Source of the DNA: Chromera velia
Taxonomy: Eukaryota; Sar; Chromeraceae
Assembly (NCBI GenBank): GCA_018398765.1
Contig: JAHBMJ010004883.1
Location: 7,462 to 71,461 of the forward strand
DNA length: 64,000 bases
Direction: 5' to 3'
This document shows, piece after piece, positions 36,762 through 60,667 of this stretch (position 1 is its first letter; the number at the start of each line of letters is the position of its first letter). The notes under the pieces are model-generated. The model was not told where the DNA came from. It worked only from the letters and a program-made list of their open reading frames with translations, and ran no database searches. A program made the translations under genes and the position numbers.

Positions 36762-37221
36762 ATGGGCAGCGCTTGGTCGTCTCCTCCTCTGGACGGGCAA
36801 GAGGACCTTAGGGTGTGCTTCAACTCTACGACTGCCCTCCAGGACATCAGGGAAGACGCAGAGTCGCGGCAATATATTCTGACTCATCATACAGACACTC
36901 AGGTGGGCTTGAGGGGACCTGCAGGAGCGAGACGGGCACTTGGATTTGGGGCTTGCGTCTTTCTAGATTCCTGTGTCCATCAGTCTGTTCGCGTGTCTGT
37001 CTTCATGGTTTCTTGTCTGCTTCCCATGCCGCCTTTCCTTCGGCCTCCTGACAGTGACCATCCGGCAGATGATGGGGAAATGTAGCTTCTGTCTGCGGAA
37101 CAGTCTATCTATGTTGTACGTACGTCCGATGAAAGAAATAAGCTAATAAGACAAGCAAGCTAACGAACCGACACACAGCAGGAAGAAGAAAGAAAGACAG
37201 AAGCAAAGAAAGAAAGAACGA

Positions 37222-37377: not shown

Positions 37378-40300
37378 AAAAAAGAAAGAAAAAAAGACAG
37401 AAAAAGAAAAACGAAAGGAAGTAAGGAAGGAAGGAAAGAAATAACGAAATAAGATCAACGAACCAGCGAACAAAACAACAAGAAGACAGAAATAATTGTT
37501 TCTTTCTTGCGACGTTCAGTCCGGTCGGGCTGCTTGCGTGCCTTCTGACAGCCTGTCCGTTTTCCTGAATGCTCTCCCTGCTCTTTCTGCGTGCCCCCCT
37601 TTCAACTGTCTGCCCCCGCTCTCTGCAGCGAATCGCCGACGCTTTTTTCGATTTGATCACCGCCATCGCATATGCGCTCTTGTCCTTCCAAATCTTCGCA
37701 CTCCTCTTCTCCTCCAGGGTCTACGTCGGTCGGTCGGCAGCACCTTGTTGTGCGTGTGGAGCCTCTTCCTTCCTGCCTGCCTGCCTTCCTTCCTTCCTTC
37801 CTTCCGTCCCTCCTTCCTTCCTTCCACACTTTCCCCTGACGGAACTGGTTTTTTTATTTTCTTTTTGCAAGCTTCGAATCTGCGAATCTCTTTGTGCCTG
37901 CCGGAAGACCCGGCACACATAAACAGACATATGAACGTGAGCGCCCGCAAGGACACGGAGGGCGGGATGAAAAACGTGAATGGAAATGCTGGTGTGGATG
38001 CATGCATGAGTACTCCGGAAGGCAGAGCTGGAGTCATGTCAGCTGTGTGCCCAGGTGAAACGTATGTATTATTTGCATGTTTATGTGTGCAGATCTGTTC
38101 CCTGGGAACAGTCACTTTCCAGCCACAGAGTTTTCTGCTATCCACTCGGTTCAAATTTTTGGCGTCTCCATTTTGTTCATCTCCTTCATCGCATCTTGTG
38201 GAATCACCCACCTTCTTGTTTCATTCCAGGAAGCATTTCAGGTCTGTCTGCCAGCTGATCTGTCTGTCGTTGGATTCTTGAAGTTTCCTTCTCATCTTCC
38301 CTTGCACGTGTTCATCTCTGGAAGGGCGAACACATAGAGTATTTTGGTCGATTGTTTTGTCTGTCTATCTCTTGTGTGCCTGCTTGCGTTATTTGAGTGG
38401 CGACGAAGAGGAGGGTTCTTTCAGTGACCCTTCCGAAGTTCCCTTTCTTTCTTTCTTTCTTTCTTTCTTTCTCTCTCTCTCTCTCTCTCTGGTCCTTTCG
38501 TCTCCTGGTTGATGTTCGTGCAGGTTCACTTGCATTACTCCCTCACTTTCATCAAACTCGTCTGCGCCGTGGTGTCCCTCGCCACAGCCCTCCTCTTGGC
38601 GAAGCTGATCCCAGCCACACTCCGGTCACTTTCGGAAATTGAAATCACAAGGAAAGTCAGTCCGTCCGTCCGTTCTTCAGTGAGGCGATGAAAGGGAGGG
38701 GCGGTGTGCTTTTCTTGTCCATCGTCATTTCTTTTCACCCATCCTCTCCTCCAAGTTGTGGGTTTCGTGGGGTTTGGAGCGCCTCTGCTCTCAGCGCTTG
38801 CGCACGAGAAAAGGATTTCCTTCCTTCCATGCGCCAGCAAGAGAAGAGAAGAGGGTGTTCCCAAATACCTGCAAGAAGAGAAGGAGGGTTTCTTTGGTTT
38901 TCGCATGGATGGATGTGCCCATACCCGTTCCCTTGCAGAGCTGGGCAGAGAGTTTACAGGAAGGCAAAGTGCGTCAATGATAAAAATTGTCCCTCCCTCC
39001 TGCCTTCAGGGCACGACCAAGAGTTTGTTGCACCACCGGAGGGCCTCGCACAGCGAGTTGTCGGGGGTAGAGAAGGAGAAGGAGAAGACTGAGGGTCAGT
39101 CCCGCGGAGAGGCTTGTGTGTGTGGGGGGGGATAAAAGGTTTGAGTGCGTGTCTGCTGGGGAAAGAAGTGTCAGAATCATGGTGTCATTTATCTATAGTC
39201 GAAGCTCTGCTCTCTTCCTCTCTGGGTCTCTGAGTAAGTGTAGAAAAACATGTCGGGTGTGGGAGTGTAAGCATGTCTTCAAGTTCGCATATGTAAATGT
39301 GCATGTTTGACTCGCTGAGTATATATATTTGTTTGGTTCACAGGAAGGTCGTTGAGACATCGGACGCGAGGGGCGTCGGAAACGAAGAAAGTTGCCGACT
39401 CCGGGTGGGACAAAGGCGCGACGGGGCAAAGTCTGCGGTAAGCTTGTGTGTCGGTTTGGGTTTAATTCCCGTTTTCTTTTTGCCTTGCCACTCAGACAGG
39501 TCATCCATCACAGCTGCGATGACGTGAAATGAAATCACAAGGGTTTGGAGCACTGAATGGATGGATGGATGGATGGATGGATGGGCCCATGAAGGGACAG
39601 CTGCGTGACAGTTGCATTCTGCTGAAATTGGGGCATTCCTTCCCCTCTGCCTGGCTTCCTTCCTTCTATCGTTCATCCCCCTGAACGTCTCTCCCTCTCA
39701 CACACACTCACTTGGGGTTCATCATACACTCTCTGTATCTATCTGAATGTTCAATACTCGCTCCTTGCTACTCTGTGTTCCGCCCCATGTCTTTTTCAAC
39801 GCCTGAGTCCGAGAAGAAGTGGAAACAAACGGATGCAAGCACATGGGCGGACACAGAGAGACATCAACGCCGGAACACGAAACAAATATTAATCATAGGA
39901 ACTTATTTTCCATTCGGATTGCCAGCCCTCTCGGAGACTCTTGCCCTGTGTTTGAAACATTGTCCCTCTTCTACATTTCTTTCTGTTTGAAAAATCTCTG
40001 CTGCTCTTCTGCATTTGTCCTTCCCTTTGTCTCTTCTGCATTTCCTTTTGGTTGACATGAGCGCCTTTCCATCTTCCCCGAATATCGGCGTGACGTTTCC
40101 CTCCCCCGTCTCCCTCCTGGATGTTCTGCTTCCTTTGCGTGCCTTTCTCTCCGTTGATCCAGGAGTGATGAGCCAACAGGCAGCAGAGGAGTGATAGCCC
40201 ACTCAGGAGATGAGCCGAGACGAGACGAAAGGGGAACAGAGAGAGAGGGAGATGGGGCGGGTCTGCATGAAAGCAAACCCCCGCAGAAAGAGCAATGGAC

Positions 40301-42357
40301 GATGAAGCTTTCCTTTGCGGAGGATGACTGCGAAGAATCAGAAATGGTGAGAAGAGGAAAAAGGCGGGGGGGTGCTTGTCTGAATGACCGGCTCCTTTCC
40401 CATACTTTGCTTCGCCTTTTAGACTACTTTTTCGTGCGAGTATCGTTACATCTCTCTCAATTCCCCTTCAGCACCCTTCGACTGTTTGCATTTCGACTCA
40501 CGGGAAGAGGCATAGTGATGAATGGATGAGTGCTTGATGCCTGAACACAAGGCGTTTGTGCCATGGACGACGGCCTGTCGATTCTCCCGGATGAAAGAAG
40601 CGAAGAGCGCCTGGTTGCTTTCCTGTCTTCGTGCCTCTATCATGTTGCACGCACATGTGTATGTGCAGAATGCGGAAGGCGGAAAGCAGAGTAAGATGAG
40701 CATGGATGTGAAGAAGGCGATGTCGGTGCCCGGATTTGCGGTCCTCCCGCCAGGAGGAGGAAGGATGATGCCGGGGCCCTCCAACGTCCCCCCAGGGGGG
40801 AAGGTTGGGGGGACTGCGCCCTCGTCCAACGATCGGTTTAGGAGGGACAGGGCACTGAAGGGGGGGGTGGAGAGAAAAGCAAGCCATGACAGCGCAGTGG
40901 CGACGTTCAATCGACTGGTCAGTCGGTCGGCCACTGCTTCTCTTCCATTTCGGACCGAGAGATAGATGTAATTGTTGCAGTAGGCATTTCAATTTGCCTT
41001 TTTTTTTTCGTGCTTCTGTTGGCAACTCTCTTTTTTCGGACTCTTTGTGTGTTGGGTTTTAGAGAGAGCGTTTGGATTCTTGGATTGTTTCCGTCTTTCT
41101 TGCATGCACGCATCTTCATGCATGACTGGACTGGACGTGTTTATTGCCGCAGCAACCTGTGTGGAGAGAGATAGTCAGGAAGAGCAGCCGGGATGATATC
41201 GAGAACTCTATCAGAGAATTGGAGCAACAGGCGGCAAGGGAGAGTGCATCAGAGTTGAGAGGAGTGGCCAGGTGGTGGCTGAGTGAGAAAATGCCCCCAG
41301 GGGTTCCTGTGCCCGTGCCAGAGCCCCTGCCTGCCTCTCTTCTGCAAACAAACACGACCTTGGCAATGCGTCAGTTGACTGCGGGCTGCTTGAAAGAGTC
41401 CGTGATCATTTTCAGCGAACTGCCCAGAGGCTTCGACGAGAGAGTCCGCCGAATGCTCTCAGAAGACCAAAATTTGGACCGTCTCATTTGGTTAGTGCAG
41501 TGCGTATCTTCAAAGAAACAGACGGACATTGACGTTTCTCTTTGGAAGCGGGAACAGGCCAAGAAAGAAGGGAAGTCCATTGAGGAGAAGGGAGGAGACG
41601 GAGAGGCAGAGTCACCGGAACGAAAGGCAGAGAGAGAGAGGGAGGGTGAAAAGACAGAGACGCAGACGGTGATGGGCATCCGATTTCTCTCCTATGAGAG
41701 GGACCCGAAGAACCAACACGGATGGGCAACAGCAGCAACAGCAACTGCCGTTCCCCCAGTGAGTTTTGTTGTTTGGCGTGACAGACTGATTTGCATGAAT
41801 GAAACCGTAAAAACAATCGGTTGCTTTCTTTCGTCGTCTGTCAGTTTATCATACAAGCAAGACGCCGCACATAAAGTTAATGAAGCATCTTTCGAGCCAT
41901 ACAGGTCCCCACGTCGTTTCTTTCGTGACAGTTTCCAGCCACCTTCTCATTTCTTTCGTTCGTTGTTTGTTCTTGCTTAGCTTCGTTTCCGCCTGTCTTC
42001 TTACCCGCCATCCGACCCTTTTCTTGCTTTTTTCATCCTTTCATTTCTTATCCTCTCCTCTCTGGTCGCATTCATCTTTTTCCTTTCTGCCCATTTAATT
42101 GACACATTTTTTCTTTCACCTTCTCCTGCATTCACTGCACGGCTGCTTGTCCAGATGAACCAGCGAAGGGCTTCTTCTTTGCTCTCGGCTCTATCCTCTC
42201 TCTTGTGCCCTTCCTGCCGAGACACCACTCTCTGCTTGATTCTCCTCATGTGCTTCTCTTGCGGCCTTGCGTACAGTGGCATCATGCTTGATTGTTAAAA
42301 CTCTTTCGTTCGTAGCTCTCTCTCTGTTTATTTCCCCCCCTGCTCACTACAACTGCC

Positions 42358-42400
<43 letters not shown>

Positions 42401-43604
42401 CGTTTGCGCGCGTGTGCAGGGACGAAGGGCCGGTCATGCGAGGCCACGGTTTGTCGATAACGGGGGCCCATCTCAGCCATACAGACGCGGGAGCTCATCT
42501 GGGCCCGGGCGGGTCCCTTCTTTGATTCCCTCGCTGATTCAGTGCGTTTGCCCTCTCTCAGAGGCGCAACTGGACCTGATCTCGAGACTCTCTGTGTGTG
42601 GTGAGTCGTTGCATGTATTCCTTTTGATACATCGATACAAAAAAAAAAAACTGCATGGACCTGATCTCGAGACTCTCTGTGTGTGTGGTGGGTCGGTTCC
42701 TAGTTAGGTGTATTGGTCTGATTGAGAATCTCTCTCTTCCTCCTCTCTATCAATCAGCAAGTTCTCTTCCTGCTTGTTCTATCAATACATCATGTAAAAG
42801 TTCAGGCACGCTTCTTCTGTGTTTCCCCCCGACAATGCTTTTCCCGTCTCGGTGTATGCGTGCGTGCGTGTCTCTTGTTTTGATATTTCCGCGCTCTTCT
42901 TGGATTGCGCTTACCCCCTAACTTTACCGGTTCCTCATTCACTCGCTCATTCGCTCATGCAATGGATCAATGAATGAAACTCTTATCCAGTTATTGTTTC
43001 ATCGGTTCTATCGGCGAATTCTGGACTCACAGACCTCCGTGACAAAAATCCCCCCACAACGAATGCATCTCTTGATGCAGTGCAAAACAAGTTCTTGTTC
43101 CTCCTTCCTTCCTTCCTTCCTGCAGGTGCGAACGTCGGCATCAACGAGTTCTTCTGCCTCGTCGCTGGTGTTCCGGTTTTCCACAGCAACAACGACCGGC
43201 TCAGCGTCCTCGTGGAGAAGGCCTTCATCGCCCACAGGGCCTCTGGAGGACGGTCCGTCTACAGTCGTCGTCTATGTGTCTCCCTGATTGATTGCATTTG
43301 TATTTCATCGATCTTTGAAATGGAATTTCTCATTTCAAGTGAAAGAAAGAACAGCTCAATCTGATCATGCGTATGGAAGACCGTCATACAGATAGACAGT
43401 CAGGGAGGGTGCATGGAGGACGGAAGGGGGGACGTGACGTCCGTCGTCCACTGGGGGGGAGGGAGGGAGGGAGACACAGGCCGATCGACTGGACTTGCAA
43501 GATCGAGCGGAGGACGTATTTCTTTTGAAGGCCAGACAGAAAACAGCCCCCTCTTTGGTTCCTTCCGTCTTGCGGCTGCATGCGCTTGTGTGTACACATG
43601 CATG

Positions 43605-43644
<40 letters not shown>

Positions 43645-43918
43645 GACGCATGAACTCTGTTCGTTTATTCTGCTCGTCCCTTTGCCTGCCTGCCTGCCAT
43701 CTTGCAAGCAGTCGGACGGTTCCCGCTTCCCCGAACGTCACAGGAGGAGAGGGAGGTGCGAGCTCTGGACAGGAAAGAGGGAGCAGGAGCGGAAGCGGGA
43801 GCCTCGGGGGGAGGGGCAGCGGGTCCTCGAGCTCTCGGGCTCGTCTCTACGGGTCCTCGTCGCACAGGAAACACCTCATGTTTCCCATCTCAGGTAGGTA
43901 CGGGCATCCATCCACTTC

Positions 43919-43953
<35 letters not shown>

Positions 43954-44192
43954 TTTTTTCTTTGTTTCATTCATTCTTTCTTTCTTTCTTTTCTTCCTTC
44001 CTTTCTTCCTTTCTTTCTTTCTTTTCTTTCTTTCTTTCTTTCTTTTTCTTCTTTGTTTCATTCATTCATTCATTCTTTCTTTCTTTCTTTCTTTCTTTTC
44101 TTCCTTCCTTTCTTCCTTCCTTTCTTTCTTTCTTTCTTTCTTTTCTTTCTTTCTTTCTTTCTTTCTTTCTTTTTTTTCTTTGTTTCATTCAT

Positions 44193-44224
<32 letters not shown>

Positions 44225-44358
44225 TTCTTCCTTCCTTTCTTCCTTTCTTTCTTCCTTCCTTCCTTTCTTCCTTCCTTCCTTTCTTTCTCTCTTTCTTTCT
44301 TAAAGAATGATTTCATGTGTGCGAATATGAGTTGCGCGTGCCGCTGTGTGTCTGTGTG

Positions 44359-44410
<52 letters not shown>

Positions 44411-44651
44411 AGAGAGAGAGAGTATGTGTGATGAGTGGTTCACCTCCCTCTTTTTGCATGTATGTCTGTCAATGCCCAGAGGAAGGGATGGTGAAAGTAA
44501 TCGAAAGGAACTAAATGAGTGCTCACCCTGTGACTTTCCCGCTCGCTCTCACGGTCTTGCTCTCTTTCTTGCAGGAAGACAGGTGATCGAACTTCTCCTC
44601 TCTCCTAAGTTGAACGTGAAGGGCACGGACTGTCAGGGAAGTGTCAGTTCG

Positions 44652-44693
<42 letters not shown>

Positions 44694-46041
44694 TTTTTTC
44701 TTCTTCTCTCACTCTTCCTCTCTCTTTCCTGTGCATGTATGTGTGTGTGTTCTGATGTATTAAATTCCAGTGTGTCTCTGGGTCCGGTTGATGGATTGAT
44801 TGATTGATGGATCAGTTCTCCACTAGCTGCCTTCCCGCTGTGCCCATCTGTCTCGAGAGACAGACCGAAATACCCTGCTTCGCGCCTGAAAGAATCTGCC
44901 GGCTTTCTCACGTTTGCTCCTCGTGCTTCATGTCCTCTTTAAATTGTTTTCTCTCACACTCTGGCTTTTCGGATGTCTCCTTCCTGTCGTCGACTACTTG
45001 CTGTCTCCCCCATTTTTTTCTCCTTTCATCTGTGCCTGTCTGTCTGTCCGATCGTTGACCCTCTGTACGTCGTTATCTGTATGTTCAAAGTGACCTCCAG
45101 CTCTCTGTTTGCCCCCGGTGTCCCGTGGAGGTGTCCCATGCATGCACTTTCTTCTCTCTATACCTTCTTACGTGATTGAGTTCCGGCATCGGTGTATAGC
45201 CACCGAGAGCCTGGGTATGGTTGTGTGCGGCTTCCTGTCTCTATGTGCGTGAGTTTGTGGGCATGCATGTGATGTCTGCGTAACGTATGCTGTTCTCTCT
45301 CTGTGTGCAGCCTGTGAACATCCTGAACGGCAAAATTTTCGGCTCTGGAAATCTTGACGGCTGGTGAGTCTCTCTTCTCTCTTTCTCTCTCCTTCTCTCT
45401 CCCTCTGATTTGTTCGTTTTTCTTCTTTTCCCTTCCCTTTTCCCCCTTCCCCGTTGCTCTTTTCTCTCCTTTTCCCTTTTCCCTCTGCAGTCTCCTTAAA
45501 GTTTCTCTCCGACCGCAGGGTCTCAGTCTGTGAGGATGAAGGGACCAGCACGCACGCATTGGTCCAGACGAAATGGAGTCATTTTGACGTCTGCACAAGG
45601 ATGCTCTTCAATGTCTCTCCAGGTGTCTGCCTGCACCGGGGATTCGCACTGAGTCCTCGACCATACCGATCTGTCTTTTTGTTCGCTTCCATCCACATGA
45701 ATGGTTGAATCACATCTGATTCGTTGGTGTCCTCTTTTACCAATGCCACTTTGGTCGGTCTGTTCTGCAGTGCTTTTCTGGGCTTTCAAAAACCGTGGGA
45801 GAAGGGGCGGTTCGACACGCTTCTGGGCCCCTTAATGGCGCTGCCGGGGGGTGAGATGGTGTTTGGTTCGAGAGACGACTCAAACGCAGAGGGGCTGCCG
45901 GTCACGCAGGCGGTCAGAGAGGACGGTGGTTGGTTGGTCAGAGCGATTGCTGCCGAGGGGGGCCTCGAGAATGTGCTGTTCTTCGTTCATTCTCTGAGGC
46001 TCTTGGCGGAGAACCTAGAACAGCTATTTAAGCACCAGTGA
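36762..46041 (+). CDS. Ethylene-receptor-like membrane protein with a novel C-terminal region (16 exons)
   Basis: Exons: 36762-36902, 37629-37728, 38093-38241, 38524-38659, 38939-39094 (or from 38756), 39344-39437, 40163-40346, 40669-40917, 41153-41758, 42420-42600, 43126-43252, 43712-43893, 44575-44642, 45311-45363, 45519-45680, 45771-46041. All are in phase, giving about 952 (or 1,013) residues. Exons 2-4 encode three membrane helices that align with the N-terminal domain of plant ETR1. Helix 1 has D-x6-Y, helix 2 has FIASCGITHLL (ETR1: C-G-A-T-H), helix 3 has KLVCAVVSLATALLLAKLIP. No GAF, H-box or histidine kinase ATPase motif appears downstream. Instead come a Pro/Gly-rich linker, a 202-codon Glu/Lys-rich exon and a conserved-looking 270-residue end. 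The start MGSAW could be N-myristoylated. The C-terminal function is unknown; a two-gene fusion of my exons cannot be fully excluded. Confidence 0.75.
37181..37445 (+). repeat. (GAAA)n polypurine microsatellite, intron 1
   Basis: About 265 bp of almost pure GAAA units with slips to GAAAAA and GGAA, sense strand purine. It lies in the first intron of the ethylene-receptor-like gene. Confidence 0.95.
37629..38659 (+). other. Ethylene/copper-binding-type transmembrane domain
   Basis: Three exons carry the three helices. By alignment with ETR1, Asp25, Tyr32, Ile62, Cys65 and His69 have counterparts. Cys65 and His69 are the copper ligands in plants. Pro36 and Ile35 are replaced by Ser and Leu. 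Spacing D-to-Y (7) and C-to-H (4) is identical. Confidence 0.75.
43917..44301 (+). repeat. (TTTC)n polypyrimidine microsatellite with a ~190-bp higher-order period, intron 12
   Basis: About 385 bp of TTTC units interrupted by TTTGTTTCATTCATTC and TTCCTTCC blocks that recur about every 100-120 bp, indicating larger-unit duplications. It is the reverse complement in type of the intron 1 array. Confidence 0.9.
44362..44420 (+). repeat. (TA)n(TG)n(AG)n compound microsatellite
   Basis: TATATA run, then TGTGTG, then GAGAGA, in intron 12 of the ethylene-receptor-like gene. Confidence 0.9.
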
Positions 46042-47165
46042 CCGACGGTGTTGTATAGTATGCATACCATTGTCAGCTTTTCATCAATGTTCAATACTCA
46101 AAGGAGTTTTTTACAATCAATACACAACTTATAAACTGTAGAATTAAGTAATTTTTTTGAATTAATTATATGCTAGTGTTATTTTAGAACACTTTCAGTT
46201 ATATTGAAGGGTTTTTATTTTGTTTATCTTTTATTTATAATGTTTTTGTATAATTCGAATATGATCTGGTATATCTTCATTTTTTTCAAAGACTCTCATT
46301 TAGCAAAACACTGAGTTTTTTTTGTTTACTGTACTATCACAGACTTATATGATTTGAAAATATATCGACAGTGTATATTTATTGTAAGATTCATATTATA
46401 TTCGTGTTTTTAAATTCGCAAGTTTCAACTTTCGCTCCTTTCGGTATACCTTCTCACAAATTATCACAAATTCAATTAATTTGGTCTTATTTGGTCTATT
46501 CTTCTTTCCCTGGCAGAATTTTGCCTATATAATCTCTATTGAAACTAAGGTGGGTCATTTGGTACCCCTAGGGTCGTTCGTGATATGCAAAAAACACTTT
46601 AAAAAAAAATGAGAAATAAATATAGAGTCTTATCAGTAGACCAATAAAAACAAACATCTTTAGATACAGTTTCACTAAAAGTATTTCTTCTACTTTTCAG
46701 CCAGTTTTCTGGATCGATTTCTTTGACATAAAATTTATTCAAGAATTTTGTTGTCTAGGGTAGTATAACACAGTACTAGCACTAAGTTACACTAAGTCTA
46801 CAACAATAGTATCAGGCAAGAAAGGTTTCACCTGGGGTTTTACAATTCTAAAATTGATAAAAATCTTTCAATCCCTAGTATTGAGGGAGACGAACCTTAA
46901 GCTTTGTCACCGCTTTGATATAAGTGATTAAAGTGAAATAAAAGACTAGTTTAGCCATTTAAAAGAATGCTGGAAGCGAATTTCAATCAATCACAGAGAT
47001 TCAATGAAGAACGGCGCTTAGAACGCCCTAGCGAACATCATTGAATTCTAGTTTGAATATCATTAAATTTGCCCCTAGCTCATGCAGACTTACTTGGCTC
47101 GATCGCAATTAAATCTGACTGCGAAAGAGTCGGCGGCAGTACAAAAATTCTCTCTAGCTTCCGAT
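46042..47165. other. AT-rich, CTAG-rich island at a convergent gene junction
   Basis: Between the stop of the ethylene-receptor-like gene (46041) and the stop of the HNH gene (47166). AT-rich throughout with poly-T runs, and CTAG at about 46568, 46757, 46779, 46877, 46950, 47025, 47047 and 47077. No coding exon or repeat array seen. Confidence 0.65.
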
Positions 47166-48524
47166 TCATCTGTTAGGATAAGAAGAGGGGATCTCTTGAA
47201 TGGGGGGCCTTCCAACAAATCTGTTTCCTTTCTGCAGGTTCTCTTTTTTCCATAACGGTTGGAGGTTTGAAAAATGGAGACGCGCAATTTGAGTCTCTGC
47301 GTCTGGTCTCTTCCGATTAGGGCCCGGATACATGATGGGGGTAATGTGGTCGAGGTGCCAGTGGGTCCCGTAGTTATCCCACGACATCCCGGGGTTGCCG
47401 TGGAAACCATCCTTCTCTAAGTGAAGTTTCAAAGCCGGATAGGAGCAACCCAAATATTCATGTGATCGTTTCCGCACCCCGAAGGCCGGGGACTCACCAC
47501 GATCTCGAACAGCGGCGGCACACCGAGAGACGGATCCTTGCACTATGGCTTTCAAACGGAAAAGGGGATCAGCCAAGTACTTCTCTCGCCTGCGTGCGTT
47601 CCGCCGGTGCTGTCTTTCCGCGAAAGCAGGGTTGTCTCTTTGGCATTGTGCACAATTGCTTCGAATACGTTTATGCTCGCAAACGCTTCCTCCGCCACAC
47701 TCCGGGCAATATGACTTTCTGCGACCGTGTACGCAGATTTGAGAACCTCCGCATTCTCTGCATTGATCGCGTCTACGACCGTGCCTACAAATTGCACTCC
47801 CCCCACACTCCCTACAATCGGAGCGCCGCTTGCCGTGCTCACAAATTCCCTTGCCCCCGCACTCCTTACACAAAAAAGCATTGCGTCCATGCTCGCACAG
47901 TCGACCCCCTCCACAATCTTTACAGTAATACCGATTGCGACCGTGTTTGCAGATTCCTCCCCCCCCACATTCCCTGCAAAAATATTTTATTTTCCCATGG
48001 GGGCACTTATTCCGACGATCTGGAAGTGAGCGGAGGTCTTTTGTGCCTGTCCACGCCTTCGGCTGTATGTTTTCAGGTGCAGCTGATTCAGCAACGCAGC
48101 TGTCTGGTGCAGCCGCATTGTGGGACTCAGCTGTGGTGCGTGTGCTGTCGTCACAACATGAAGGGATCGAATTCACCAGCGTCTCAGAATAAGACGAAAC
48201 GGGAACGGGATCGTCGGGCTCCGGGTTGGCGGCATAGTGCGGTAAGCTGCCAGCAACTTTCGAATCCCGCAGCCATCCATGTCTGGAGACTTTGATATCA
48301 AAAGCACCCCTGTGTTCTTTAGGACCAGGCGCGTGCCCTTGAGCTGCAGCCCTGTCGACCAAACGACCCTCAGTTAGAAACTTACCCAGAGTGTCCTGCT
48401 TTTGAATGGTGGACTCCAGTGCCTGGCTGGAGAAGGGGGTCGTTGCATTCTGTAAGTGCTCAACTGATGTAGAGAGCCGGAGACAGTTGCAGTGGCGGCG
48501 TAAGACTTGAGCAAAACGTTTCAT
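47166..48524 (-). CDS. Intronless HNH nuclease-like protein with seven C-x-H-G zinc-knuckle-like repeats
   Basis: A single 452-codon frame, ATG at 48524, the only intronless gene here. Residues 174-294 hold seven exact 18-residue repeats of the form C-x-H-G-x5-C-x2-C-G-G. Their Cys/His residues probably bind zinc and contact nucleic acid; such repeats are known from algal, oomycete and large-virus HNH proteins. Residues about 385-432 have HWHLDHITP, then HFSNLQPLWKKEN and QKGN, the H-D-H...N...H-N-like core of HNH endonucleases, which cut DNA using one metal ion. Residues 1-20 are Arg-rich and amphipathic, possibly a mitochondrial or plastid leader. The last repeat has lost its G-G. Lack of introns suggests recent arrival by transfer or retroposition (inference). 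Target unknown. Confidence 0.8.
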   Translation of the reverse strand: MKRFAQVLRRHCNCLRLSTSVEHLQNATTPFSSQALESTIQKQDTLGKFLTEGRLVDRAAAQGHAPGPKEHRGAFDIKVSRHGWLRDSKVAGSLPHYAANPEPDDPVPVSSYSETLVNSIPSCCDDSTRTTAESHNAAAPDSCVAESAAPENIQPKAWTGTKDLRSLPDRRNKCPHGKIKYFCRECGGGGICKHGRNRYYCKDCGGGRLCEHGRNAFLCKECGGKGICEHGKRRSDCRECGGSAICRHGRRRDQCRECGGSQICVHGRRKSYCPECGGGSVCEHKRIRSNCAQCQRDNPAFAERQHRRNARRREKYLADPLFRLKAIVQGSVSRCAAAVRDRGESPAFGVRKRSHEYLGCSYPALKLHLEKDGFHGNPGMSWDNYGTHWHLDHITPIMYPGPNRKRPDAETQIARLHFSNLQPLWKKENLQKGNRFVGRPPIQEIPSSYPNR

Positions 48525-48963
48525 TTCTCTCTACAGATGAGTCTTGCAGCGCATTAGGCTTGTTGCGGGATTGCAGAGAGAAAACTTCCGAGCTGATTAA
48601 TGGCAAAACACCAGCAAGTTCGGCAGACGCATGAATGCGTTTTGCGTCGCCTGACATCAAGCCATGCGTGCCAGGTTAGATTGTGGATGCAAAGTTTAGC
48701 AAAAACACGGCGGAATCTTGAAAATCAACCTGAACGTCTTGACTGCAGACAAATGAAGAGAGTAAACACTATTTTACTTTGTGGTCGTTTTTCTGATGAA
48801 CAGAGGTATTCAGTGATCTTCAGTGTTGCTCCATGCAGGGCCGCGAGTCGAGGCACGAAGTGCAAGTGTGCGCGTGGTCACTCTGCATTCATGATGGTGT
48901 TAATTAATTGCACAACGATTGCAGTGTTGCAGTCGCGCGCGAACGTGCACGCAACGGGTGGCC
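48525..48963. promoter_or_regulatory. Upstream region of the HNH gene
   Basis: About 440 bp with no supported gene. Contains TTAATTAATTG at 48899-48909. Leads into the hairpin repeats. Confidence 0.3.
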
Positions 48964-49015
48964 GATGCGCGCAGGAAAGGCTAAGCTGTGCTTTAGCTCT
49001 TTCTTAAGCATCATC
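48964..49015 (+). repeat. 52-nt hairpin repeat, copy 1
   Basis: GATG-CGC pairs with GC(G)-T-CATC, then an internal loop, then GAAAG-GCTAA pairs with TTAGC-T-CTTTC around a short loop. Copy 1 differs from the others by G to A in the outer stem (GCATCATC). Confidence 0.7.
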
Positions 49016-49024
49016 GGGGTGGCC

Positions 49025-49076
49025 GATGCGCGCAGGAAAGGCTAAGCTGTGCTTTAGCTCTTTCTTAAGCGTCATC
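49025..49076 (+). repeat. 52-nt hairpin repeat, copy 2
   Basis: Tandem to copy 1 with a 61-bp period. It shares a further 25-30 bp downstream (TCCAAAAGGGATC, GGCTCCC) with copy 3. Confidence 0.7.
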
Positions 49077-49624
49077 GTCCAAAAGGGATCCTAAACGGCT
49101 CCCACTGCACCGTCCATGGAAATGTCCCCATTGCTCTGAGTTCCCCCCCGTCAACCCCGTGCCAACCAAGACGGAATAGTCCTTCCCCAGTTGCCTGAAT
49201 TCACTACCCAAGTAGTCAGCCCAACATTGCTGCTAAAGCTTCCAATTGGAGAAAATAGAATATACAAAGAAAAAAACGCGGTAGGTGGGTGGGTGGGTGT
49301 CCATTCACTTTCAGCGAAGAGGTTGGCTAGTCTAGGGGTGATAGCCTTGGCCTCTTATTCATATAAAACACGTAGGGGACTGTCGGTCCAGGTCTCTTGT
49401 CTTCTTCCGACTCTTAGTATTGTTTGGTATCTTTGTTCAATCTGTATCAATCGATCTCTTTAATGTATGCATGCTAATTAATTCAATTAATTCTCTTCTG
49501 TGCATATACAGATCGTGGCCCCCGCTCTTTATTGTCATGCTGTGGCCATAGATGCGTGCATCGATCCGAGGAGCGAGAGGATGTTAGAAAAGGATTAGGG
49601 CCCGCGATCTCCCTAACCCTTTTG
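49077..49624. other. Repeat-domain sequence without recognised features
   Basis: No coding exon or array seen. A GGGTGTCC-TTCACTTTCA segment near 49288 resembles the entry to the direct repeat at 56021-56040. Confidence 0.4.
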
Positions 49625-49811
49625 CACTTTCACTGACTGTTTCACAGACAGTCTTTCAGATTCTCTTCTCTCACTGCTCTTGCTGTTACTTCTGTTAGAA
49701 TGTATCTTTCTTGCTGAAATATTGTTTGAAAATAGTGAGTGGCGGCAACATGCGGTGACGACGCTCAAACGCTCTGCTAAAGGCTCTGCAGGCGCTGCCA
49801 CGCCTTCCATT
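49625..49811 (+). repeat. 187-bp direct repeat, left copy
   Basis: From CACTTTCACTGACTGTTTCA to CACGCCTTCCAT. The right copy is at 56033-56218, same orientation, roughly 90 percent identical by eye. Together they bracket 6.2 kb of satellites. No coding content, no obvious TG...CA ends. Confidence 0.8.
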
Positions 49812-49934
49812 TCAGCTTTTATCGTCACCTTATATCGTTCAATGTCGTTCATATAGAGGAGGGCCCACTAGATATATAGAGGTATAGAATCACGTCTTGC
49901 CGAAGGGTTGGCCCCGACAAGCCGTAGGGTGGCC

Positions 49935-49986
49935 GATGCGCGCAGGAAAGGCTAAGCTGTGCTTTAGCTCTTTCTTAAGCGTCATC
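49935..49986 (+). repeat. 52-nt hairpin repeat, copy 3
   Basis: Identical over the hairpin to copy 2, about 910 bp away, in the same orientation. Confidence 0.7.
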
Positions 49987-50206
49987 ATCCAAAAGGGATC
50001 TTAGATGGCTCCCTGTCTGAAAAGCAGGCCCAATCTGATAGGAAAGCAAGCAAGTTGCCTGAAAATATGTATATATTAGAAGGGCGGCTGCTTGGTGACC
50101 AGAGTGTCTGGTAAGGAAATGAATAATGGAATATACAAAGCAGTGCACTGATGACCGAATAGTCTACAGAAAGAACAGTACGTAGAGGCACAAGTCAGAG
50201 CGAATA

Positions 50207-50300
50207 TACATATGATGGGTATGAGTCAAAGAAGATGTGCGCAGGAGCATAAGTCAGAGAGAATGTGTACAGAGGCACGAGTCAGAGCGAATATATAAGG
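50207..50300 (+). repeat. 30-bp satellite family (GAGTCAGAGAGAATGTG-type), first block
   Basis: Three to four degenerate units of GCACGAGTCAGAGAGAATGT. The same family returns at 54043-54300 and 55486-55640. Confidence 0.75.
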
Positions 50301-50339
50301 GGAGAAGTCTGCTCATCCACCGGCTGCTTGCCTAGAGAG

Positions 50340-51900
50340 AATTCTTTACATTCTTTTACAATAACTGAATGAGTACACAGAAAGAGGAATCCTTGTCATC
50401 CTCTGCTTGCAATGACTGAACAAAAACGTAAAGAGACTCAACGGAATCTCTGCCTTGCTGCTATAATGACCAAATGAACATGAAGAGAAAATTCTGTACA
50501 TTTCTTTTGTAACGACCGAACGAGTGTACAGAGAGAGGAGTCTCTGTCATCCTCCACTTGCAACGACTCTAGGCAACGACTGAATGAAAACGCAAGAAGA
50601 TATAGCAGAATCTCTGTTTTGCTGCTGCAACAACCGAATCAATAGCAGAGAGAACTCTTTACATTCTTTTTGCAACGATCAAACGAATGTGCAGAGAGGA
50701 GGAATCGATCTCTGCCACCATGCACCGGCTTGCAACGAATGGACAAACACCCAGATAGAATTCTGTACATTCTTTTTGTGGCGACCGAATGAGCATGTAG
50801 AGAGAAGAATCTTTGTCCTGCTCTTGGTCGTGTTCTGCTTGCAATGACTGAACAAACGCACAGGAACACTCAGCAGAATTTCTGCCTTGCTGCTGCAACG
50901 ACTGAATAAACATTCAAAGAGAACCTTTACATTCGTTTTGCAACGATCGAAGGAGTGTGCAGAGAGAGGAATTTCTGTTATCTTCTGCTTGCAATGACTG
51001 AACGAGTACGCAGAGATATCAGCGGAATCTATACCTTGTTGCTGCAACAAGCTGTTGTAACGACCGAACGAACATGAAGAGAGAAATCTTTGCATTCCTT
51101 TTGTAACGACCGAACAAATGCGTAGAAAGAGGAATCTCTGTCGTCTTTTGCTTGCAATGACTGAACGAACACGCAAAAAGACTCAGCGGAATCTCTGCCT
51201 TGCTACGAATGAACATGAAAAGAGAATTCTTTGCATTCCTTTTGCAACGACCGAACGAGTGTGCAAAGAGAGGAATTTCTGTCATCCTCTGCTTGCAACG
51301 ACTAAACGAACACGCTGGGAGACTTAGCAGAATCTCTACCTTGCTGCTGCAACGACCGAGCGAAATCGAATGAACATGAAGAGAGAATTCTTTGCATTCC
51401 TTTTATAACGACCGAACGAGTGTGCAGAGAGAGGAATTTCTGTCATCCTTTGCTTGCAATGACTAAACGAACACGCAAAGAGACTCAGCGGAATCTCTGC
51501 CTTGCTACGAATGAACATGAAGAGAGAATTCTTTGTATTCCTTTTGCAACGACCGAAGGAGTGTGCAGAGAGAGGAATTTCTGTCATCCTCTGCTTGCAA
51601 CAAATGAACGAACACGCTGGGAGACTCAGCGGAATCTCTGCCTTGCTGCTGCAATGACCGAATGAAATCGAATGAACATGAAGAGAGAATTCTTTGCATT
51701 CCTTTTACAACGACCGAGCGAGTTTGCAGAGAGGAAAACCTGTATCATTCTCTGCTTGCGACGACTGAACGGACATGCAAGGAGACTTGGCCACGACTGA
51801 ACAAACGTCGTGCGGAGAGAGAATCCTTCATCTCTTTGCTGAGATAATCAACGATTAAATGAACATGCAGAGACAGGACTTATCTTCGCCTTGCTGCTGC
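50340..51900 (+). repeat. Satellite of ~53-bp monomers with a ~162-bp three-monomer higher-order repeat
   Basis: Monomers begin near TTGCAACGACCGAACGA. Three variants alternate (ending TGCTTGCAA, TGCTGCAA and CTTTTGCAA). Junctions at 51241, 51294, 51347, 51405 and then 51546, 51596, 51650, 51708 show spacings of about 50-58 bp and a higher-order step of 162-164 bp. Open frames across it reflect the near-multiple-of-three unit and are not taken as genes. Confidence 0.8.
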
Positions 51901-53515
51901 CAGCGGGTCTGAGAATGAATGCAGTGAGGGATTTCTGCCCTCTCCTATCTGCAAGAGGGAATGAACGTAGAGAGAAGGATCTGTGCGCTTCTCTGTCTGC
52001 GAAGCAGAATGAATGTGAGAATGAGTGTAGAGGGGGATCTCTGCCCTTTCCTATCTGCAAGAAGGAATGAATGCAGGGAGAAGGATCTGTATCCTTCGTT
52101 GTCTACAAGAAGGAAGGAATACATAGAGGGAGCTTTGCTCTGGCTGTCTGCAAGGCAGGATGAATCTGAAAATCAATGCAGAGAACAATCTCTGCACTAT
52201 CCATTCACAAGAAGCAAAGAAATTTCAATGCAGAGAGAGGGATCTGTGCGCTTCTCTCTGGGAGGCGGGATGAATCTGAGAATAAATGCAGAGAGCGATC
52301 TCTGCACTATCCAAATTTAAGTAAATCTGCAAGAAGCAAAGAATGTCAAGAAAAGGATCCGTGCGCTTCTCTCTGGGAGGCGGAATAAATCTGAGAATAG
52401 ATGCAGAGAGCGATCTCTGTCCTGTCCTATCTACAAGAAGGAATGACTGCAGAGAGAGGGATCAGATTCTGTGCGCTTCTCTCTAGGAGGCAGAATGAAT
52501 CTGAGAATGGATACAGAGGGGGATCTCTGTCCTATCCTATCTGCAACAAGGAATGACTGCAGAATGAGGGATCTGTACGCTTCTCTCTGGGAGGCGGAAT
52601 GAATCTGAGAATGGATATAGAGAGGGATCTCTGTCCTATCCTATCTACAAGATGGAATGAATGCAGAAAGAGGGATCTGTGCGCTTCTCTCTGGGAGGCG
52701 GAATGAATCTGAGAATAGATACAGAGAGGGGTCTCTGTCCTATCCTATCTGCAAGACGGAATGAATACAGAGAGAGGGATCTGTGAGCTTCCCTTTCTGC
52801 GAGGCAGAATAATCCTTGAATGACTGCAGAGAGGGATCTCTGTCCTCGGCCATCTGTAAGAAGGAATGAATATAGAGAGAGGGAATTGTGCACTTCACAG
52901 TGACTGTCTGCAGAAGTTAAAGAATGTGTGTAGAGAGAGAGAGATCTGCACCCTTGCTTGTCTGCAAGCTAGAATGCATGCAGAGGATGGTTCGTGGCCT
53001 TCAGAATTATCCCTGTCTACAAAAAGGAGTGGATGCAGAGGGATTGATTCTTGCCCTTCACTGTCTGTAAGAAGGAGTGAATGTAGAGAGACGTATCTGT
53101 ACCCTTTGCTTTCTACAAGAAAGGAATGAATGCTGAGAGAGAGATCTGGGTTCCCCTTGTCTGAAAGAAACTTTAAGAATGAATGCAGATAGCGACCTTT
53201 GCCCTTGTCTGGCTGCAAGCAAGCAGGAATGCGGAGAGGGATCTTGCCCTTCACTGTGTATAGGAAAAAAGGAATGCAGATGGATCTGTGTCTGCAAGGA
53301 GGAATGGATGCAGAGAGAGGGATCTTCACCCTTCGCTGCCTGCATAAAAGGAACGAATGGTCAGAGAGGGATCGGTGTGCTCCTTGTCTGTAAGAAGGAA
53401 TAATTGCAGAGAGGGATCTTTGCCCTCATCTGGGTGTAAGCAAGAAGGGATGCAGATAGGGATTTTTGCCCGTCATTGTGTGTAAGAAGAAAAGAATGCA
53501 GAGGGATGAAGCGTG
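51901..53515 (+). repeat. Second satellite family (GGGATCTCTG / GGAATGAATGCAGAGAG), ~95-120-bp units
   Basis: Paired half-units alternate. One contains GCTTCTCTCTGGGAGGCGG (seen at about 52252, 52362, 52486, 52578, 52682), the other CTGTCCTATCCTATCTGCAA. It decays toward 53.5 kb. Confidence 0.75.
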
Positions 53516-54042
53516 AGGGTTCTTATCATGGGTGCGTCGGCCTAAATTCTTCGCTTTGATCCCAAAAATTCTTTGACGACTTGTATAGCCAAAGACTACA
53601 AAATGCGTTCACAAGGATGGCTTGGATGTTAATGGATAAAACAGGGTACGCGCGATAGAAAGAAAACTGTACGTGGAGGAACCCGAGAACAGAATGCGTT
53701 CAGGTGAAGCAGCATGAATATAAACATGTGAAAAGAGACACGAAGACCGAAGATGCTCCGAGGCATGAGGGTTCTCACTCAGACTGTCTGGCTTGGTAAT
53801 AATCGTATGCGCAATGGCATGTAAACAGAGTGTGCTCATTTATGGGGGCAAGAAGAATGCGGTGTGCGGTGACAAGAGACAAGAATGTACTCAGGGGCAA
53901 GCAAAATACGTGTGGTCAGGGGAGTACAAGGATCGAATGCTCAGGAACAAGAAAAACTTCAACGCGGTATGCAGGGGACTGAGGAATAAGTGTGTGACCC
54001 GGTGATGATCCGGTGTGATCGTGTTCGCATGGGCAGGAAGCA
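53516..54042. repeat. Degenerate repeat-domain sequence
   Basis: Looser G/A-rich units (GAATGCTCAGG, GGGGCAAG) related in style to the flanking arrays; no gene. Confidence 0.45.
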
Positions 54043-54300
54043 GAGAGAATGTACGCAGGAGCATAAGTCAGAGAGAATGTGCGCACGGGCACGAGTCAGA
54101 GAGAAATTTAATGTGCGCAGAGGTACGAGTCAGACAGAACGTATGGATGGGCACCAGTGAGAGAGAATGTATGTACGGGCACGAGTTAGAGAGAATGTGT
54201 GCAGAGGTACGAGTCAAACAGAATGTGTGTATGGGCACCAGTCAGAGAGGATGTGCGCAGGGACACGAGTCAGAGAGAATATACGCAGGGGCACGAAGAA
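54043..54300 (+). repeat. 30-bp satellite family, second block
   Basis: About nine units of GGCACGAGTCAGAGAGAATG with point differences. Confidence 0.85.
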
Positions 54301-54690
54301 TGGGTGTAAATATGTGTGACCGCACGATGATCCGATGCTAAGGGGCCGTACTCTACATATAGGTAGATCATGACCCCTGACTTTAAAGAAAAACAGACAA
54401 AAATCTAGGAATGTTATGCAAGAAGTTTCATAAAAAACCAAAAACTATAAATTACAGAAAATATGACAGTAACATTAGTTTTTATGTTGGACTAGAAATA
54501 TACATTCATTTTTATGAAAAACTTCGTGCCGCCAGGTTTTGTTGGGCTGTTGGGCTTGTTGTACTGTTGGGCTTCACCTTGTTAGGAAGCTGTTGGGCAC
54601 CTAACACGCCCAATACACAACACGCCCAACACGGCCTAACAGCCCAACAAACACTCCTAACATGCATAACACGCACAATCATGATGATGA

Positions 54691-54939
54691 CAAGCTTGTA
54701 GGGATATTGACAGTGAAGAATTTGAATCATCTGAATATGTTTCTTTCTCTGTTCTCTGCAAGCCGTCTTCTCTTGCAGTCCAGACATCTTTAATTCCTGT
54801 TGGTTTTGTGTTTGGTTGGGTTCATGAATTCTTGCAAGACAAACGGAAACTGACTGTCAGCACTGAAGAAATAAAACGTTTGATTCGTCTGTGGAATGAA
54901 ATTGATCACTCCGAAATGATTGCCGATAAAGGGGGATGA
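54691..54939 (+). pseudogene. 82-codon open frame inside the TIR element, no ATG
   Basis: An open frame from after a TGA to TGA, with protein-like composition: acidic start (DIDSEEFESSEY), hydrophobic middle (SLIPVGFVFGWVHEFL), amphipathic end (STEEIKRLIRLWNEIDHSEM). It lacks a start codon. It could be an exon remnant or a decayed element gene; family not recognised. Confidence 0.3.
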
Positions 54940-55171
54940 CTTAATGAATGAGTTGGAAAAGTTAAGTACAAGGAGTATACATTTGTCTGCATTGTGTGTA
55001 CAGGTTTGTCTCCATTTTCTTTGGTGTATTGTGAACGTTTTACGAAGAGTTTCAGGCTTATACTGCACCAATGTGCAGCGCTGAATGTTTTAAATGGTGT
55101 CTGTTGTATTCATATGCTTTGATACGTGGACCTGGCGTGTGAGACAAGCTTGTAGGGAAGGGAAGGGACTT

Positions 55172-55246
55172 TGTTGGGCTCTGTTGGGCACTGTTGGGCT
55201 TCATGACCTGTCATGCAGCTGATGAAAGGCCCAACAGAGCCCAACA
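55172..55246. repeat. Perfect 18-bp inverted repeat (GTTGGGC hairpin)
   Basis: Arms TGTTGGGCTCTGTTGGGC and its exact complement around a 39-nt loop that itself pairs TTCAT with ATGAA. Confidence 0.85.
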
Positions 55247-55276
55247 GGCAACAAGCCCAAGAGAACCTGGCGACAC

Positions 55277-56032
55277 AACTTTGGACTGACATTTCTCAAG
55301 ACTGAAGTTGAACTAGAGCTTGAGAATAGCCCAACATAACACTCCAGAATGTGCTTCATCTACTAGTTTTAACCTTATAACTTGGGATATAATATATAGT
55401 ATAAAAAGATGTAAGAAAACTTAGGGGTGAATTTTAACTTAGGTATACCCACAGTGCGGCCCCCTAGATCCGATGTCATCATATGTGTGGGGCACGAGTC
55501 AGACAGAATGCGCGCAGGGGCACGAGTCAGAGAGAGGCACAAGTCAGAGATGTAAATATGTCTGACCGGGTGATGATCTGGTGTCATCATATGTGCGGGG
55601 CACAAGTCAGACAGAATGCGGCAGGGGCATGAAGAATACGTGTTCACGGGGCACCAATTAAAACAGAGCTCCCACTCAACCCAAGGCACAAAGAATGAGC
55701 AGGGGCAAAAAGGAGAGTTCACACTTGACTCAAAGCTGTCATGAAGAATCTTTGTGCGCAGGGGCACACGACGGAGTTTATGCTCGACTCAACGCACGAA
55801 CAAGAAGAGAGTTCACCACTCAACTCAAGGGTATGATTGAGTGCGTGTGAACTTGCAGGCGACAAATAGATCTCACACTTGAGTTAAGGGCACAAAACGC
55901 GGTTTATGATAAGAGACGTGAGCATGAACCACAGTCGAACCAATCCATCCTAAAATGAAGGAGGCTGGTTGCTGGGTGCTCATGGAGCTGGATCAAACGA
56001 AGCGGACTCTTCTAGACGAGGGGGTGTCCGTT
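55277..56032. repeat. Repeat-domain remainder with third block of the 30-bp family
   Basis: 55486-55640 has further GCACGAGTCAGACAGAATG units interspersed with longer spacers. From 55640 to 56032 related CACTCGACTCAAGG words recur. No gene supported. Confidence 0.5.
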
Positions 56033-56218
56033 CACTTTCACTAACTGTTTCATAGACAGTCTTTCAGATTCTCTTCTCTCACTGCTTTTGCTGTTGCTTC
56101 TGTTGGAATATATCTTTCTTGCTGAAATATTGTTTGGAAACGGTCAGTGGCGGCGACATACGGCGACGACGCTCAAACGCTCGGCTAAAGGCTCTGCAGG
56201 CGCCGCCATGCCTTCCAT
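56033..56218 (+). repeat. 187-bp direct repeat, right copy
   Basis: Counterpart of 49625-49811. Aligned minus-strand open frames (EGMAAPAEPLAERLSVV and a near copy at the left) are shared only because the DNA is shared. Confidence 0.8.
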
Positions 56219-56299
56219 GTACTTTAATATACCCCTTTTGGGTATACCGGGGCCCCCAATTTTGAAAGTTTGAATCCGTGCGAGTGGCCTGGTATGGCT

Positions 56300-57420: not shown

Positions 57421-58182
57421 TTATATGGCGCGCGCAGCGCACAATTCATTAGAGTGATTTTACGGACCAATTTGGCCCCGGAAAACGAAGCGGGGGGCAC
57501 TTACAAAACAAAAATACCCCAGTCCATATGCATGCACGCTAGTCTTTCGCCAAAAACCCGGCCCCGAAAGGCTGGATTTGCGCTATGCGTGCGTCAGATG
57601 GCCGGGTTTCAGATCTGCTCAACCCTGGGCTTTTTTCCCGCGGGGGGGGGGGTTTTCCGCGCTGCTTTTTTCCCGCGGGNNNNGGGGGTCGGCGCTACCG
57701 GCCAGCACCATGCATGGCCGGCGTGCGTCAATCGTGCGGTTCTCATTTTTCTTGCTTTCCGGGGCCGTTCGCAAGCTTGCTTGCGTCAGATTACGTACGT
57801 ACACGAGAGTCTGCATGAATGTATTGATGAGATTTGCGATGCATGCGCATGCATGCAATATTGCATGTACATATGACATACATATATATGACGATCAACA
57901 GCTATATATATAGGTGATCTTCGATCTGGAAGAGGGTCGAAGAAAAACACTCATGTGTTTGCAGGTGGAAAGAACGCGGAACCTTTCCACTAATTGGATT
58001 GAATGGGCAGAGCGACCGTACGAGCAACTGTGACGAAGTCGTCTTTCTCTACTGAAATTTGAAGCAACACTCGAAAACTTGTGTTCTCTCCGATCACTGC
58101 AGACACGCCCGCAGGCAAACAACCTAAATTTGGTTGCGTTTACATCAATAATTCATTTTGTTAGAAATTTTCTCGAGCGAAG
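57421..58182. promoter_or_regulatory. Upstream region of the kinase gene, with a dispersed repeat copy, a 4-N gap and TGCATGCA motifs
   Basis: 57476-57510 is a second strong copy of the GTAAGT-bearing repeat. 57620-57680 has a duplicated TTTTTTCCCGCGGG segment with a long G run. A gap of four N is at 57680-57683. GCATGCGCATGCATGC lies at about 57838-57857, some 330 bp before the kinase ATG. Confidence 0.4.

Positions 58183-60616: not shown

Positions 60617-60667
<51 letters not shown>

What the first reader, a model, noticed from the sequence alone, without database searches (positions are those of the whole stretch)
37629..38659. Ethylene-receptor-type membrane domain joined to a non-kinase C-terminus
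Three exons encode helices closely matching the plant ETR1 sensor domain. The pattern D-x6-Y in helix 1, I-x2-C-G-x-T-H in helix 2 and a K-x3-AVVS-x-ATAL-x-L-x2-x-IP helix 3 are kept, so five of the seven residues known to matter for ethylene binding (Asp25, Tyr32, Ile62, Cys65, His69) have counterparts. Pro36 and Ile35 do not. Downstream, 12 in-phase exons give no GAF, H-box or kinase ATPase motif. If real, this is an ethylene or copper sensor in an alveolate-like alga wired to an unknown output.
Basis: partly seen in the sequence, partly recalled or inferred. Interest (0 to 1): 0.9.

Follow-up and report, generated by a model that had tools for sequence, protein, structure and literature searches.

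The report
Ethylene-receptor-like sensor in Chromera alga
A coral-associated alga related to malaria parasites carries a protein whose membrane part is a true relative of the plant ethylene receptor, apparently not joined to the usual kinase and with two ethylene-binding residues changed; the public record, which shows a kinase attached, looks like two genes merged by mistake.

Summary
The ethylene-binding domain (EBD) is real. Exons 37629-37728, 38093-38241 and 38524-38655 splice in phase into 127 residues over Pfam ETR1_N's cut-off (39.3 vs 27 bits). The window is Chromera velia CCMP2878: a UniRef protein of that strain (P0001, 1217 aa) maps exactly onto it. Two further EBD genes lie in this genome (C1766, C855). 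The C855 copy has the same three-exon layout (100/152/132 bp against 100/149/132, same phases), so the helix exons belong together. Both copies keep all seven ethylene-binding residues; the window gene has Ile35->Leu and Pro36->Ser. Pro36Leu makes tomato Never-ripe ethylene-insensitive (PMC6727826).

But it reaches the kinase over a 12.9-kb gap without a glycine loop, while 400 bp before the kinase exons lies an unused exon with an ATG, a signal-peptide-like start and a glycine loop. I conclude that the kinase is a neighbouring gene and that the EBD protein (873 aa, stop at 46041) has a C-terminus of unknown family. Chromerid ethylene-receptor homologues are already in print (PMC7700396). Ethylene binding and output are untested.

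The parts
36762..36902 (+). Exon 1, start codon and 47-aa N-terminus (as in deposited P0001)
   Evidence: exact splice chain to P0001
37629..37728 (+). Exon 2: helix 1, D55-x6-Y62, L65, S66 (ETR1 D25, Y32, I35, P36 positions)
   Evidence: 100 bp, same length and phase as the C855 paralogue's exon
38093..38241 (+). Exon 3: long loop 1-2 and helix 2, I113-x2-C116-G-I-T-H120
   Evidence: paralogue exon 152 bp, same phases
38524..38655 (+). Exon 4: helix 3 with K141, then juxtamembrane SEIEITRK
   Evidence: paralogue exon 132 bp, ends SVEVTRK
39010..40917 (+). Exons 5-8 (39010-39094, 39344-39437, 40163-40346, 40669-40917): charged, low-complexity linker
   Evidence: no family at E<=10
41153..41758 (+). 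Exon 9 (202 aa), unknown; single-sequence AlphaFold model uninformative (mean pLDDT 38.7)
42420..45363 (+). Exons 10-14 (42420-42600, 43126-43252, 43712-43893, 44575-44642, 45311-45363), unknown domain
45519..45622 (+).
45771..46041 (+). Last exon in my model, in frame after exon 14, stop at 46041; the deposited model leaves it at donor 45932
   Evidence: coding signal of the tail 45933-46041 is weak
45933..58821 (+). 12.9-kb intron of the deposited model; holds AT-rich DNA, tandem arrays and an opposite-strand ORF; read here as intergenic
58183..58421 (+). First exon, unused in P0001, of the neighbouring kinase gene: MWALLVFACLSSIIVSQG... and glycine loop LLGAGAWGAVLK
58822..61559 (+). Kinase exons 2-6 (58822-58972, 59504-59903, 60214-60485, 60886-60968, 61325-61559); merged with the EBD gene in P0001, here a separate 459-aa gene

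Best explanation
The locus encodes a divergent member of a small Chromera family of ethylene-receptor-type membrane proteins. Shown: three transmembrane helices homologous to the ETR1 sensor domain, with the three residues assigned to the copper site (Asp, Cys, His) kept, two of the ethylene-pocket residues (Ile35, Pro36) replaced while both sister genes found keep them, and no histidine-kinase, GAF or receiver family detected in the 873-aa model. Argued from anatomy: the protein kinase attached in the public record is the next gene downstream. Inferred: the protein sits as a homodimer (or heterodimer with a sister) in an internal membrane, binds Cu(I) between helices 1 and 2, and passes a change in helix 3 through the shared juxtamembrane x-(I/V)-E-(I/V)-T-R-K segment and a long charged linker to a C-terminal domain that acts by binding partners rather than by phosphotransfer. 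With Pro36 changed it is more likely blind to, or weak for, ethylene: a copper or other small-ligand sensor, or a constantly signalling partner of the intact sisters.
For: PF25487 over cut-off in the three Chromera genes: window 39.3 bits, C1766 41.9, C855 38.4. Same exon lengths and phases as C855 (100/149/132 vs 100/152/132). The loop between positions 36 and 62 is 46 residues in each of the three, against 25 in ETR1 and 22-34 in 51 cyanobacterial rows. The three form one group against 52 others, support 100/100 (bootstrap not settled, long branches). All seven residues in both sisters and in 30 of 31 high-scoring cyanobacterial EBDs; window gene L35, S36. Cu site Asp25, Cys65, His69 (PMC12643061, passages); I35, P36, I62 among residues essential for ethylene binding (PMC6586836, passages); Pro36Leu = tomato Never-ripe, ethylene-insensitive (PMC6727826, passages). 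Kinase has its own start and glycine loop at 58183-58421, in phase with the exon at 58822; a glycine-loop pattern, written after that exon had been seen, occurs once in six frames of the window. HisKA is common in the genome (53 matches at E<=0.01) but none listed lies on C3632, C855 or C1766.
Against: No transcript or biochemical evidence. Pfam and the cyanobacterial HMM score only helices 2-3 of the window gene. The deposited model joins a kinase, and it may rest on RNA data I could not see. The tail that ends my model (45933-46041) has almost no coding signal (0.03 per codon), so the 3' end is unsure. Splitting off the kinase rests on motif and splice anatomy: Pfam scans of the N-lobe alone hit nothing for either version, the kinase's higher score as a separate protein (72.5 vs 66.0 bits) covers the same stretch and does not discriminate, and its first exon has a modest codon score (0.10) and no second copy in the genome. 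No relative of the C-terminus was found in the searches made.
Confidence: 0.55

Rival explanations
1. A working ethylene receptor: L65 and S66 are tolerated in this lineage and it binds ethylene through Cu(I) much as ETR1 does, with a non-kinase output.
For: D, Y, I62, C, H and the helix-3 Lys are kept; Leu for Ile is mild; of 20 divergent cyanobacterial relatives read, 10 have Ala at position 36, one of these (L087) with D, Y, C and H kept.
Against: Position 36 is Pro in 31 of 31 high-scoring cyanobacterial EBDs and in both sisters; Pro36Leu removes ethylene response in tomato (PMC6727826).
Confidence: 0.25
2. The deposited model is right: one 1217-aa protein joins the ethylene-receptor domain to a protein kinase, a one-chain counterpart of the plant ETR1-CTR1 pair.
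For: UniRef/EukProt protein P0001, named protein kinase domain-containing, with PF25487, PF00069 and PF07714; its 20 exons chain in phase.
Against: 12.9-kb gap with tandem repeats and an opposite-strand ORF; the join begins at the beta-3 strand (CIALKV) with no glycine loop before it, while an exon with start codon, signal-peptide-like stretch and glycine loop sits 400 bp upstream in matching phase. No kinase family in the 578 aa readable of the C1766 sister nor in five ORFs scanned downstream of the C855 sister.
Confidence: 0.1
3. A decaying duplicate: the domain has lost ligand binding and the protein has little function, or acts only as an inert dimer partner.
For: Two of seven pocket residues lost relative to both sisters; no relatives of the C-terminus found.
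Against: Reading frame intact through the 15 exons of the model, the true frame scoring best in 14 of 15; the metal ligands, helix-3 Lys and juxtamembrane motif are kept.
Confidence: 0.1

Closest known systems
Plant ethylene receptors (ETR1 family), ethylene-binding domain
   Same: Three-helix Pfam ETR1_N domain; Asp25, Tyr32, Ile62, Cys65, His69 and the helix-3 Lys have counterparts
   Different: Ile35->Leu, Pro36->Ser, a loop between helices 1 and 2 some 20 residues longer, no GAF, histidine kinase or receiver family found
Cyanobacterial EBD proteins (Synechocystis slr1212 type)
   Same: Same domain; 62 of 244 genomes sampled from that phylum have it over the cut-off
   Different: The 31 high-scoring bacterial EBDs read all keep Ile35 and Pro36; bacterial outputs were not examined here
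Ethylene-receptor homologues of other SAR protists, including chromerids (Bidon et al. 2020, PMC7700396)
   Same: The review says that such homologues occur in chromerids and may have varied outputs; this gene may be one of them
   Different: No gene is named in the passages and legends I saw, and its Figure 5 could not be seen; the possible merger with a kinase gene, the lost Pro36 and the two sister genes were not in those passages
UniRef record P0001, 'Protein kinase domain-containing protein', Chromera velia CCMP2878
   Same: Same locus; exons 1-14 and the first part of exon 16 agree with my model
   Different: Continues into what I read as a separate kinase gene

Membership tests
Ethylene receptor sensor domain (PF25487 ETR1_N) | Score above the curated profile cut-off | tested here: met
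   39.3 bits vs 27 for the 127-aa piece; 34.3 for the 873-aa model; helices 2-3 only
Ethylene receptor sensor domain (PF25487 ETR1_N) | Copper-site residues Asp25, Cys65, His69 | tested here: met
   D55, C116, H120
Ethylene receptor sensor domain (PF25487 ETR1_N) | All seven residues essential for ethylene binding | tested here: not met
   Ile35->Leu, Pro36->Ser
Ethylene receptor (ETR1 family, full protein) | GAF and histidine-kinase (or kinase-like) domains after the sensor | tested here: not met
   Pfam E<=10 on the 873-aa model finds only ETR1_N and a sub-threshold DUF4363 hit; NCBIfam nothing at E<=1
Ethylene receptor (ETR1 family, full protein) | Binds ethylene with Cu(I) and signals | not testable with these tools
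   needs a binding assay
EBD-protein kinase fusion (as deposited) | One transcript spanning EBD and a complete kinase domain | tested here: inconclusive
   Deposited splice chain is possible, but the kinase has its own start and glycine-loop exon; no RNA data held
FUZ/MON1-type longin domain for exons 11-15 (my lead from memory) | Match to the longin profiles | tested here: not met
   no family at E<=10 with or without the Gly/Ser-rich linker; no such chain in the PDB search of exons 10-16, which left out exon 15 and that linker

The most novel reading that the evidence does not exclude
Chromera velia has a family of at least three ethylene-receptor-type genes uncoupled from histidine kinases although its genome is rich in them; the window member has given up the ethylene pocket while keeping the copper site, and so works as a copper or other small-molecule sensor wired through a C-terminal domain of no known family. 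Any picture of a chromerid 'ethylene receptor kinase' built on this record would then rest on an annotation merger.
Probability: 0.35. Interest if true: 0.75.

Novelty: new variant of a known kind. Interest (0 to 1): 0.52.

Why it matters
Ethylene-receptor homologues in protists are, in the review I could read (PMC7700396, passages), predictions with a possibly broad range of outputs and no functional tests. This locus gives a defined test set in a relative of the apicomplexans: two EBDs with a complete pocket and one with a broken one, in the same genome. It also warns that a public protein record joining an ethylene-receptor domain to a kinase is probably two genes, which would mislead domain surveys.

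Tried and rejected
The longin idea for exons 11-15 (from memory) found no support. Homologue searches: the 127-aa EBD (none at E<=0.01 of 12 candidates; length filter too narrow), the whole model with region 1-145 (only P0001 at E<=0.01 of 419 candidates), the C1766 EBD (none at E<=10 of 651). The C-terminus: own-genome search gave self hits plus five weak matches elsewhere, best E 0.0125; PDB sequence searches gave nothing credible (the best, E 8e-5, is a short repeat match to a designed protein). AlphaFold on exon 9 alone gave mean pLDDT 38.7 and was not taken further. No PDB chain matched the EBD at E<=10. The EIN3 search was silent but so were its controls, so it says nothing. The kinase's higher Pfam score as a separate protein was considered as evidence and dropped, because the scored stretch is the same. 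Pfam on five ORFs downstream of the C855 EBD gave only sub-threshold hits (best ATG1-like_MIT1, E 0.0016, 18.8 vs 22.5 bits). Structure prediction of the spliced EBD was not attempted: the tool takes contiguous window translations or returned proteins, and P0001 is over its stated length. Of the 24 lowest-scoring rows I read 20; four were left out (three short partial matches and one other).

Full report
What is there. Pfam assigns them to ETR1_N, E 7.8e-10, 39.3 bits against a cut-off of 27, and to nothing else at E<=10. The scored stretch is helices 2-3; helix 1 falls outside it. A block-shuffle control (2000 copies, 12-residue blocks) never reached the real score of 22.3 bits against an HMM built from 53 stretches of 51 cyanobacterial loci; the best shuffled score was 17.2. 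For the two sister domains described below, too, 0 of 2000 shuffles reached the real score (34.4 and 17.9 bits).

Source. Residues 1-145 of my model find one protein at E<=0.01 among 419 candidates: P0001, 1217 aa, 'Protein kinase domain-containing protein', Chromera velia CCMP2878. All 1217 residues map to the window as 20 exons from 36762 to 61559 with gt/ag borders. The window is contig C3632 of a held genome of 177.8 Mb.

Sister genes. Exon-by-exon searches of that genome show a second EBD on C1766 and a third on C855, found as weak hits in the right order (E 0.365 and 0.089) and confirmed by reading the DNA. Spliced, they score 41.9 and 38.4 bits for ETR1_N. The C855 gene has exons of 100, 152 and 132 bp against 100, 149 and 132 in the window gene, with the same phases and the same end after TRK. 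The C1766 gene is split differently. A search with the C855 domain showed no fourth gene, though such searches score only the best candidates. The loop between positions 36 and 62 has 46 residues in each of the three, 25 in ETR1 and 22-34 in 51 cyanobacterial rows, and each has a juxtamembrane segment SEIEITRK, DTVEVTRK or DSVEVTRK. In a tree of 55 rows the three are one group, 100/100, with the window and C855 genes as sisters, 99/77; the program warns that the bootstrap had not settled and that long branches meet, these two among them.

Residues. Numbered in the 873-aa model: D55, Y62, L65, S66, I113, C116, H120, K141. I read 31 high-scoring cyanobacterial EBDs (30 loci that one search returned, at most one per genome, plus L037): all 31 have Y, I35, P36, I62, C and H, and 30 have D; both sister genes have all seven. 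Of 20 divergent bacterial relatives (20 of the 24 lowest rows) position 36 is Ala in 10 and Pro in 8, Cys65 is kept in 11 and His69 in 14, and one keeps all seven. Loss of Ile35 and Pro36 in the window gene is therefore most simply a derived change. From passages read: the copper site is Asp25, Cys65, His69 (PMC12643061); I35, P36 and I62 are counted among residues essential for ethylene binding (PMC6586836); tomato Never-ripe is Pro36Leu in ETR3 and ethylene-insensitive (PMC6727826). I infer, without a test, that copper binding is likely kept and ethylene binding likely weakened.

The C-terminus and the kinase. P0001 carries PF00069 (66.0 bits, residues 960-1161) and PF07714 (38.3 bits, 922-1072). 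Its join runs from donor 45932 over 12.9 kb to 58822, where the sequence starts at CIALKV, the beta-3 strand, with no glycine loop before it. At 58183-58421 there is an open stretch starting with ATG, a hydrophobic MWALLVFACLSSIIVSQG, and ending GLLGAGAWGAVLKQKDPDGDF in the phase needed by the exon at 58822. A glycine-loop pattern that I wrote after seeing this exon occurs once in all six frames of the 64-kb window, here. The 12.9 kb between holds AT-rich DNA, tandem arrays (11 overlapping rows) and a 454-aa opposite-strand ORF. I therefore read the kinase as a separate 459-aa gene. Against this: neither version of the N-lobe alone hits Pfam; the higher score of the separate model covers the same stretch and does not count; a genome search with the separate kinase found no other copy of its first exon; and the deposited model may rest on RNA data I could not see.

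Without the kinase, exon 14 joins exon 16 in frame to a stop at 46041 (873 aa). The true frame has the best codon score in 14 of 15 exons; the tail 45933-46041 is weak at 0.03 per codon, although the best of its three frames (the script printed the wrong frame label for the tail, the value given here is for the right frame; the 19 training ORFs were chosen by length alone, on both strands). The rest of the protein (exons 5-16) reaches no Pfam cut-off, no NCBIfam family at E<=1, no credible PDB chain and no other place in the genome beyond weak hits.

Kinases elsewhere. HisKA gives 53 matches in this genome at E<=0.01, none listed on the three EBD contigs. The C1766 gene runs into a gap near the contig end; the 578 aa readable show only ETR1_N. 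Downstream of the C855 EBD I scanned five ORFs, without building a gene model: only sub-threshold hits. So the outputs of the sisters are unknown, and a kinase further on is not excluded.

In print. Searches: 'ethylene receptor' with 'Chromera' (0 papers), with 'chromerid' (2 papers), 'histidine kinase' with 'Chromera velia' and 'ethylene', 'Chromera velia' with 'ethylene' (10 listed; one checked by passages, only references), and listings. PMC7700396 (passages and legends) states that cytokinin and ethylene receptor homologues were identified in chromerids among other SAR groups, possibly with a broad range of outputs, untested. PMC9603746 (passages) repeats that putative receptors occur in Chromerida. 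So the presence of such a gene in chromerids is known; I found no account of the merger, the lost Pro36 or the three genes in these searches, which cover only openly licensed papers, and the primary papers behind the review were not held or not read.

Verdict. A true member of the sensor-domain family that fails the full ethylene-receptor definition on two counts (seven residues, kinase output). It may work like an ethylene receptor's sensor half; whether it senses ethylene is open and, on position 36, less likely than for its sisters.

Noticed in passing
G000 C1766, L010:2921-543 (minus strand): Second Chromera EBD gene with all seven ethylene-binding residues; runs into an assembly gap, output unknown.
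   Followed up: partly
G000 C855, L007:2239-966 (minus strand): Third EBD gene with all seven residues and the window gene's exon layout; the end of its helix-3 exon lies in a 76-bp tandem array (2.6 copies).
   Followed up: partly
window 58183-61559 (+): Kinase gene with a signal-peptide-like start; in public data its later exons are part of the merged record P0001.
   Followed up: yes
window 47166-48530 (-): 454-aa intronless ORF with repeats of the type C-x-H-G-R-x4-C-x2-C-G-G and a DHITP motif (HNH-like, recalled); no Pfam family at E<=1.
   Followed up: partly
window 48956-49077 and from 49927: A 61-bp unit (GGGTGGCCGATGCGCGCAGG...) present as a tandem pair and again about 0.85 kb on; mobile-element or minisatellite remains.
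   Followed up: partly
cyanobacterial pieces L069-L088: A tail of divergent bacterial ETR1_N relatives, many with Ala at position 36 or lacking Cys65/His69: possible non-ethylene relatives of the sensor.
   Followed up: partly
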